A stretch of DNA of 38,320 nucleotides, taken from Pirellulales bacterium. GTDB taxonomy: Bacteria; Planctomycetota; Planctomycetia; Pirellulales; JAEUIK01. This document shows, one piece after another, positions 35,068 to 35,776 of this stretch. Under the pieces are notes generated by a model. The model was not told the origin of the DNA and made no database searches. It saw nothing but the letters and a program-made list of their open reading frames with translations. Positions within the stretch are counted from its first letter, which is position 1, and each line of letters opens with the position of its first letter. Location of the stretch: the NCBI GenBank assembly GCA_019745975.1, contig JAIESQ010000040.1, positions 1 through 38,320 of the forward strand. Direction: 5' to 3'. Made by a program: the position numbers and the translations under genes.

Positions 35068-35097
35068 GGGTGCCACTGCTGGCTTGTCCAGCAGTGC
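35068..35097. repeat. family B palindrome, left flank of RAYT
   Basis: Intact 30-base copy, GGGTGCCACTGCTGG, then CTTGT and CCAGCAGTGC. It is 39 bases from the end of the RAYT gene and is the exact reverse complement of the copy at 35747-35776, so the gene is bracketed by inverted identical repeats. Confidence 0.9.
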
Positions 35098-35136
35098 GGC
35101 ATTTCGGCCAATCGAAACAGGTCGATTCCCACTCGA

Positions 35137-35724
35137 CTAATCGAAGACATGCGGCGGCAATCGTGGCAATCTGGGAAGCGGCGAATCGACGGCCCCTTCC
35201 GGGTCGCGAAACCAGCGCGCGCTCGACCACGGCCAGTCTTCCGCTCGGCCGCTGAGTCGGCGTCGCGTCGGGTTCTGATGGACGTAGTCGATCGCTTGGA
35301 GCAGCGCGTCGCCGCTGGTCAAATTGCGATCGTAGCCCGGCCCTTCCTGCCAGAACCGAAACACGGTGACGCCCAGGCGTTGTTGAATCGTCAGCTTCTT
35401 GAGCAGTGCGCTCCGACGCTCGACGAGCTGTTGCTTGATGCGGTAGGAGACCGGCCGCTTGATCGCGCGCAGCACGGCTTGCATCGGGGCAGCATCGCTC
35501 TCGGGCCAGACAATCAAATGAACATGCTCAGGCATGTAAACGAAGGCTGCCAGGCGATAGTCGTGCCTCGCCAGCGCGCGGTCGATGCTCTGAGACAAGA
35601 GAGTTCGCCACGTGTCGTTCGTGAGCAATGGTCGCCGGCCGAAGCACGAAAACGTCAGCTCGCGCACGTCGGCGCGAATGTCGAAATGCTTGACCTGCTT
35701 GCGATGCCGACCATCAAGTCCCAT
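35137..35724 (-). CDS. REP-associated tyrosine transposase (RAYT, Y1/IS200-like)
   Basis: 195 residues. Member of the Y1 transposase superfamily with the RAYT signature: the metal-binding HUH motif H67-V-H69 in YMPEHVHLIVWP, the probable catalytic tyrosine Y131 in FWQEGPGYDRNL, and the closing YVHQNPTRRRL and EDWPWSSARW blocks. RAYTs are single-copy transposases that act on REP/REPIN palindromes rather than on their own insertion-sequence ends. The start is placed at ATG 35724, since the longer frame to 35826 runs through a family B repeat and its flank. The gene lies between inverted identical family B copies (35068-35097, 35747-35776). Frame and motifs are intact, so it may be active; activity itself is not shown. 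Confidence 0.9.
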   Translation of the reverse strand: MGLDGRHRKQVKHFDIRADVRELTFSCFGRRPLLTNDTWRTLLSQSIDRALARHDYRLAAFVYMPEHVHLIVWPESDAAPMQAVLRAIKRPVSYRIKQQLVERRSALLKKLTIQQRLGVTVFRFWQEGPGYDRNLTSGDALLQAIDYVHQNPTRRRLSGRAEDWPWSSARWFRDPEGAVDSPLPRLPRLPPHVFD

Positions 35725-35746
35725 GCCGCCGAACGTAAACTGACGG

Positions 35747-35776
35747 GCACTGCTGGACAAGCCAGCAGTGGCACCC
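35747..35776. repeat. family B palindrome, right flank of RAYT
   Basis: Exact inverted copy of 35068-35097, lying 22 bases upstream of the RAYT ATG. Earlier upstream starts of that frame would translate it, which is one reason for choosing ATG 35724. Confidence 0.9.

What the first reader, a model, noticed from the sequence alone, without database searches (positions are those of the whole stretch)
35068..35776. RAYT gene bracketed by inverted, identical palindromes dispersed through the window
The intact RAYT transposase gene (H67xH69, Y131) lies between two perfectly matching, inverted family B copies. Further family B copies occur at 821, 1015, 5748, 9002, 9046 and 32408. RAYT genes are known to be flanked by their cognate REPs, so family B is the best candidate substrate. 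Its foot sequence is GGTG rather than the classical GTAG/GGAG, which would be a divergent recognition rule.
Basis: partly seen in the sequence, partly recalled or inferred. Interest (0 to 1): 0.66.

Follow-up and report, generated by a model that had tools for sequence, protein, structure and literature searches.

The report
RAYT with GTGC-footed REP repeats
A single-strand DNA transposase-like gene in a planctomycete sits between two copies of the short hairpin repeat scattered hundreds of times through its genome, and it belongs to a large family whose repeats carry a different four-base tag (GTGC) from the one usually described for such repeats.

Summary
A RAYT gene (35137-35724, minus strand) lies between two identical inverted copies of GGTGCCACTGCTGGCTTGTCCAGCAGTG. 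The genome has 340 places within 3 mismatches of the core and none for the reversed control. The two nearest RAYT paralogs are bracketed by the same repeat; six other RAYT loci checked carry other hairpins. So family B is this RAYT's cognate REP, in the usual REPtron/REPIN architecture.

Two corrections: the foot is GTGC (GTGG in some relatives), not GGTG; the catalytic tyrosine is Y147, not Y131.

The divergent foot is real and widespread. RAYTs whose loop reads WQxGxG[YF]DRN, one residue longer than in canonical RAYTs, come mostly from Planctomycetota, also Fimbriimonadia. Of 73 with a callable foot, 68 have GTG[CG] and none GTAG, while stems differ freely. Canonical RAYTs of the same order have GTAG or GTGG where callable. 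The texts searched describe GTAG, GTGG and CGTC tags, not GTGC.

Against: several relatives rich in family B lack a family-B-flanked RAYT; the foot switch is one event on the tree; two RAYTs break a simple residue code. Verdict: a real cognate pair; a new variant of a known kind.

The parts
35137..35724 (-). RAYT (REP-associated tyrosine transposase, Y1 HUH), 195 aa; HVH at residues 67-69, WQEGPGYDRN loop at 125-134, catalytic Y147 in YVHQNP
   Evidence: residue numbers are those of the 229-aa ORF minus 34
35748..35775 (-). upstream family B REP, foot GTGC outward
35069..35096 (+). downstream family B REP, foot GTGC outward, inverted relative to the upstream copy
32409..32436 (+). dispersed family B REP, inside a long predicted gene 25916-33241
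9003..9031 (+). degenerate left REP of an inverted doublet (REPIN)
9047..9074 (-). right REP of that doublet, after a 15-base spacer
5749..5777 (+). degenerate family B REP
1016..1039 (-). family B REP with shortened loop
822..849 (-). family B REP, between convergent predicted genes

Best explanation
This is a REPtron: a RAYT gene between two inverted copies of its own REP. The protein most likely binds the single-stranded GTGC-plus-hairpin form of family B (for example on the lagging-strand template) and cleaves beside it with Y147, and in this way has spread REPs and inverted doublets (REPINs) through the genome, mostly between genes. Shown here: the anatomy, the copy number, doublets of fixed 15-base spacing, and the pairing of RAYT lineages with their own stem sequences but a common GTG[CG] foot. 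Inferred: binding, cleavage and mobility. Also inferred is that the altered loop WQxGxGYDRN belongs to the reading of the GTGC guide. By the published guide rule a GTGC guide should direct cleavage at GC (or GA) rather than CT.
For: Family and fold: Pfam Y1_Tnp 8.7e-7; NCBIfam REP_Tyr_transpos matches 24 of 24 members of A1 (window 1.9e-21; 76.4 bits, just under the 80-bit cut-off); E. coli TnpAREP 4er8 is the top PDB hit by profile (9.4e-11) and by fold (6.6e-8; model pLDDT 85.7). Repeat: 340 places against 0 control. Among 28 copies picked only by inner stem and loop, the five bases before the stem read G28 G27 T28 G27 C28; the 3' side is less conserved, C 22 of 28 next to the stem and at most 21 of 28 further on. 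Seven of 9 pairs of copies closer than 400 bases are inverted with a gap of exactly 15. Locus specificity. Genome level: of 196 genomes of the order, 31 have a RAYT matching the window's at E<=1e-40; 20 or more copies occur in 12 of these 31 and in 10 of the other 165 (p 7e-6; without the own genome 11 of 30, p 2e-5; not corrected for kinship). Foot rule. Controls: the foot caller finds a pair at 6 of 300 random own-genome places and at 0 of 345 shuffled loci.
Against: No binding, cleavage or insertion polymorphism was seen. Of 22 genomes of the order sample with 20 or more copies, 6 have a RAYT bracketed by family B on both sides, 1 has a copy on one side at a contig end (G410), 1 has only broken or partial RAYTs beside family B (G403), 1 has a 24-residue remnant beside one copy (G399), and 13 have none in the loci held (not every RAYT of each genome was held). 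The 3' flanks show no clear cleavage dinucleotide. GTAG versus GTG[CG] changes once on the tree, on which only 3 GTAG rows could be placed, so the loop-to-foot link rests on one event. Two RAYTs without the canonical His101 and Arg104 sit beside GTAG-footed hairpins that my caller missed and I read by eye: own-genome C162 and L067 of G033. My classes, gene finder and foot caller are home-made.
Confidence: 0.85

Rival explanations
1. Family B is spread or maintained by another RAYT that shares the GTGC foot, so the bracketing RAYT is only one of several users, or merely sits next to repeats.
For: The foot is shared by RAYTs with quite different stems, and several B-rich genomes hold only RAYTs flanked by other stems.
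Against: In the own genome the GTGC-footed RAYTs of other lineages carry their own stems: C37 CACTGGC, C175 CATGCCCACG, C203 a weak CACTGCTT. Family B brackets three paralogs in the same inverted geometry. Known RAYTs also need stem or loop features (passages of PMC8266576).
Confidence: 0.2
2. The palindromes are transcription terminators or RNA hairpins kept by selection, unrelated to the RAYT.
For: 10 of 46 copies lie between convergent predicted genes against 2.3% of random places; such roles are proposed for REPs in the abstract of PMC3733652.
Against: A conserved 5' foot with a less conserved 3' side and no T run, inverted doublets of fixed spacing, 18 of 46 copies inside predicted genes, and bracketing of three RAYT paralogs.
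Confidence: 0.05
3. The repeats are ends of a classical transposon or MITE moved by another type of enzyme.
For: Inverted pairs with fixed spacing resemble MITEs.
Against: The gene between the copies in the window and in the two paralog loci is a RAYT, and the foot-plus-palindrome structure fits REPs. I did not search for other transposase types near the copies.
Confidence: 0.03

Closest known systems
E. coli TnpAREP / GTAG REP (RAYT group 2; PDB 4er8)
   Same: Y1 HUH fold, HxH, YxxxNP, REP with 5' foot, dispersed largely intergenic copies, inverted doublets
   Different: Foot GTGC rather than GTAG; perfect 9-bp stem without bulge; WQxGxGYDRN loop with one extra residue instead of the E. coli pattern W94, Q95, E100, H101, R104
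Stenotrophomonas / Pseudomonas RAYTs (group 3, subclass 2.5) with GTAG or GTGG REPs
   Same: Perfect palindromes; GTGG foot known there; several RAYT-REP pairs per genome
   Different: GTGC not described in the texts searched; a GTAG-to-GTAC change abolished cleavage by the S. maltophilia enzyme in the published assay (PMC8266576, passage), which may partly reflect the lack of a matching cut site
GTAG- and CGTC-tagged REP superfamilies (PMC3733652)
   Same: Tagged palindromes, singles, dimers and clusters, RAYT linked (GTAG); planctomycetes included
   Different: Tag GTGC/GTGG; here the tag tracks a RAYT clade
TnpAY1 class 3 (Planctomycetes, Acidobacteria; foot CnGA) and subclass 2.6 (Bacteroidetes) of PMC6006769
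   Same: Non-GTAG feet or atypical structures recorded; class 3 in overlapping phyla
   Different: Class 3 has a Y....Q signature; the window protein has YxxxNP, so it is not class 3. Which subclass of class 2 it would fall in was not tested

Membership tests
RAYT / TnpAREP | Y1 HUH domain with HxH and YxxxNP | tested here: met
   HVH and YVHQNP; the Tyr is invariant in A1
RAYT / TnpAREP | Fold of TnpAREP | tested here: met
   4er8 top hit, TM 0.73 by target length, 0.54 by query length
RAYT / TnpAREP | Score above the curated NCBIfam cut-off | tested here: not met
   76.4 against 80 bits (77.2); six other loci of the same genome exceed it (C163, C162, C175, C203, C37, C82)
REPtron | Gene flanked by cognate REPs, usually inverted | tested here: met
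REP | High-copy short palindrome, largely extragenic | tested here: met
   (18 of 46 inside predicted genes against 81% of random places)
REP, GTAG superfamily | GTAG (or GTGG) tag 0-2 nt from the stem | tested here: not met
   GTGC in this genome; GTGG in 11 of 73 callable RAYTs of spacing 22, GTAG in 0
REPIN / BIME | Inverted REP doublets | tested here: met
   7 of 9 close pairs, gap 15, feet outward
RAYT activity | Cleavage and strand transfer of single-stranded cognate REP | not testable with these tools
   needs protein and oligonucleotides
TnpAY1 class 3 | Y....Q signature and CnGA foot | tested here: not met
   YVHQNP and GTGC foot

The most novel reading that the evidence does not exclude
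GTGC-tagged REPs are a further REP superfamily beside GTAG and CGTC, served by a RAYT clade of Planctomycetota and Fimbriimonadia, with relatives in Acidobacteria, whose guide-reading loop is rebuilt (WQxGxG[YF]DRN, one residue longer). The changed guide also re-targets cleavage, predicted at GC or GA instead of CT. GTAG and GTGC systems run side by side in one genome without crossing. (Odds lowered from 0.5 to 0.45 on re-checking, for the second exception to the residue code, L067.)
Probability: 0.45. Interest if true: 0.66.

Novelty: new variant of a known kind. Interest (0 to 1): 0.5.

Why it matters
RAYTs are tamed relatives of IS200/IS605 transposases. Guide reading was studied in vitro for three enzymes in the paper I read, all with GTAG guides (PMC8266576). 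A natural clade with a different guide, whose stems change freely while the foot stays fixed, gives ready-made pairs for finding which residues read the guide and whether the guide alone sets the cleavage site. A single genome here holds GTGC, GTGG and GTAG systems, so cross-reactivity could be tested directly.

Tried and rejected
Rejected: GGTG as the foot. The base before GTGC was G 29, T 9, C 4 among 42 class A loci, first copy of each pair, so it is not constant between families, although in the own genome it is G in 28 of 28 copies or nearly so.

Rejected: a simple residue code. Among called feet, His101 plus Arg104 go with GTAG in 8 of 8 (7 planctomycete, 1 verrucomicrobial) and Asn102 with GTGC in 63 of 66 (E. 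coli numbering inferred from the W-to-Y spacing). But C162 of the own genome has that Asn beside a GGTAG hairpin, L067 has GTAG hairpins without His101 and Arg104, and GTGC and GTGG interchange about 10 times on the tree, while Asn102 is kept in 13 of 16 GTGG rows. The published contacts to the last two guide bases in E. coli lie in the C-terminal tail, so the loop may not be the only reader.

Tried without result: a conserved cleavage dinucleotide 3' of the stems; sharp ends of homology between the three own-genome loci. The homology of C138 and C80 runs about 118 bases past the downstream REP and 16 past the upstream one; that of C138 and C29 ends one base past the upstream REP. Rfam at gathering threshold: no match in the window. 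An independent-contrast test had one pair only.

Classification notes: my first class labels misfiled class A members under 'canonical'; corrected. The foot function recognises only GT[AG][GC], so other feet fall in 'other'. The five class A 'other' cases (L249, L251, L275, L084, L255) are listed: in L275 and L084 one copy differs by one base from GTGG or GTGC, L255 reads GTGG in the opposite orientation, L249 and L251 do not fit. Of 235 distinct ORFs (167, 68), 39 lacking a YxxxNP motif or a W at spacing 21 or 22 were dropped from the tally. In one search at most 14 candidates per genome were scored. G002, whose partial RAYT (63% identity, E 2.7e-37) misses the 1e-40 line, counts as without.

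Full report
What is there. The window is contig 138 of a 6.98 Mb draft genome. That it is a planctomycete, probably of the Pirellulales, is inferred from the nearest named RAYT hits. The gene at 35137-35724 on the minus strand encodes a Y1 HUH protein of 195 aa (start as in my simple gene finder). It matches Pfam Y1_Tnp and the NCBIfam RAYT model, the latter just below its cut-off; by profile and by predicted fold it is closest to E. coli TnpAREP, 4er8. It is bracketed by two identical 28-base copies of family B, feet outward, 23 bases from the start and 40 from the stop.

Is it more than chance? The 24-base core occurs at 340 places within 3 mismatches (173 forward, 167 reverse) and the reversed pattern at none. 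In 1.24 Mb of own sequence (60 stretches of 20 kb plus the window) I picked copies by inner stem and loop only: 28 copies. Their five bases before the stem read GGTGC with at most one exception per position; downstream, C follows the stem in 22 of 28 and later positions are less conserved. With up to 4 mismatches there are 46 copies: 18 inside predicted genes (39%, random 81%) and 10 between convergent genes (22%, random 2.3%). Of 9 pairs closer than 400 bases, 7 are inverted with a 15-base spacer. The window's own pair at 9003-9074 has that same spacer.

Is it this RAYT's REP? In the own genome, family B brackets three RAYTs (C138, C80, C29) and none of six others checked. C37 sits by GTGC-CACTGGC, C175 by GTGC-CATGCCCACG, C203 by a weak GTGC-CACTGCTT, C163 by GTAG-GGTG, C190 by GTGG-CACGG and C162 by GTAG-CCCTGATC. 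Three further Y1-domain loci have one lone family B copy 0.6-1.1 kb away (L033, L037, L043). In the order sample (43 matches), 20 RAYTs have 52% identity or more; 12 of these are bracketed by family B within 4 mismatches, two more have it on one side at contig ends, and six do not have it. Of the 23 below 52%, 16 have flanks held and none is bracketed by it. The 52% line was drawn after seeing the data. Genome counts agree but not strictly: median 9 copies in the 31 genomes with such a RAYT, 0 in the 165 without.

The foot. I called feet from hairpin pairs near each RAYT, oriented by the better conserved flank, without assuming a foot sequence at the pairing step. Random own-genome places gave a pair in 6 of 300 and shuffled loci in 0 of 345. 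RAYTs fall by the spacing from the loop Trp to the catalytic Tyr. Spacing 22 (class A, WQxGxG[YF]DRN): 111 ORFs, 38 without a pair; of 73 called, GTGC 55, GTGG 11, mixed 2, other 5, GTAG 0. Spacing 21: 85 ORFs, 43 without a pair; of 42 called, GTAG 8, GTGC 11 (mostly acidobacterial), GTGG 5, other 18. Class A stems are very different from each other: 35 distinct first nine bases among 53 loci. So the foot is what the clade holds constant. By record title class A comes mostly from Planctomycetota, also from Fimbriimonadia and one Candidatus Electryonea. A count of the four bases before all 969 own-genome hairpins also raises GTGC (55 against 11 expected), GTGG (26 against 8), GTAG (41 against 4), TAGC (44 against 4) and AGCG (51 against 15).

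Mechanism. Work on E. coli, S. maltophilia and Marinomonas enzymes shows cleavage of single-stranded REP, a need for the tetranucleotide, and, in Marinomonas, cleavage-site choice by guide bases: GTAG gave CT or CA, GTGG gave CC or CA, GTAC gave GA or GT. A GTAC foot abolished cleavage by the S. maltophilia enzyme (PMC8266576: abstract, found passages, section 24). By that rule GTGC should select GC or GA. Enzymes reading GTGC may therefore differ where the guide is read. PMC6006769 discusses W94, Q95, E100, H101 and R104 of the E. coli enzyme among the residues tied to guide recognition, with the role of W94 unclear (passage). Among called feet, RAYTs with GTAG keep His101 and Arg104 in 8 of 8; GTGC readers have an Asn at 102 in 63 of 66 and His101 in 1 of 66. 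This is suggestive only: the switch happened once on the tree, C162 and L067 are exceptions, and tail residues also contact the last two bases in E. coli.

Against. G054 (49 copies, 27 perfect) has no class A RAYT at E<=1e-3 and only one marginal RAYT-model match. G462 (29 copies, 83% complete) has none bracketed by family B. G403 (121 copies) has broken or partial RAYTs next to family B, and G399 a remnant. G013, G354, G382 and others have many copies but the RAYTs held are flanked by other stems. Loss of the RAYT, gaps in draft assemblies, or movement in trans by another GTGC reader could explain these; I could not decide between them.

Literature. PMC3733652 (abstract, sections 5 and 16, passages), PMC6006769 (section 13, the first part of section 15, passages) and PMC2817692 (passages) describe GTAG, GTGG and CGTC tags and, for class 3, CnGA. 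Seven searches of the held library (listings seen) and term searches for GTGC inside PMC3733652, PMC6006769 and PMC8266576 gave no GTGC-tagged REP. Figures, supplements and subscription papers were not seen.

Noticed in passing
own genome, 1.24 Mb sampled (L156-L215 and window): Many REP-like families coexist: GTAG-GGTGYGY, GTAG-CCGGCCT, GTGG-CACGG, GTGC-CATGCCCACG, GTGTGC-CACTGCTT, and a double-footed TTAGC/CTAGCG CGCGG family (40 pattern matches over both strands, possibly counted twice) with no RAYT found beside it among the nine loci checked.
   Followed up: partly
own genome, e.g. L157:16633 and L158:17351: Two further dispersed repeats often occur as inverted pairs of constant spacing: AAACGACTCCCGTC (53, once 52, apart) and CCGCATTTCTCACC (160 apart); no enzyme assigned.
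   Followed up: no
G403: L358, L363, L375: Broken or partial RAYT genes still next to family B in a genome with 121 copies (one of them near a contig end); a possible snapshot of REPs outliving their RAYT.
   Followed up: partly
G054 (loci L301-L319, odd numbers): 49 family B copies, 27 perfect, many as inverted doublets about 50 bases apart start to start, with no class A RAYT found.
   Followed up: partly
L111, L113, L116, L118, L123, L125, L129: Acidobacterial RAYTs with a WQxRYYDFN-type loop of canonical length also sit by GTGC-footed REPs, with stems starting CCC.
   Followed up: partly
window 32409-32436: A family B copy lies inside a long predicted gene (25916-33241), as do 17 of the other 45 sampled copies in other predicted genes.
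   Followed up: no
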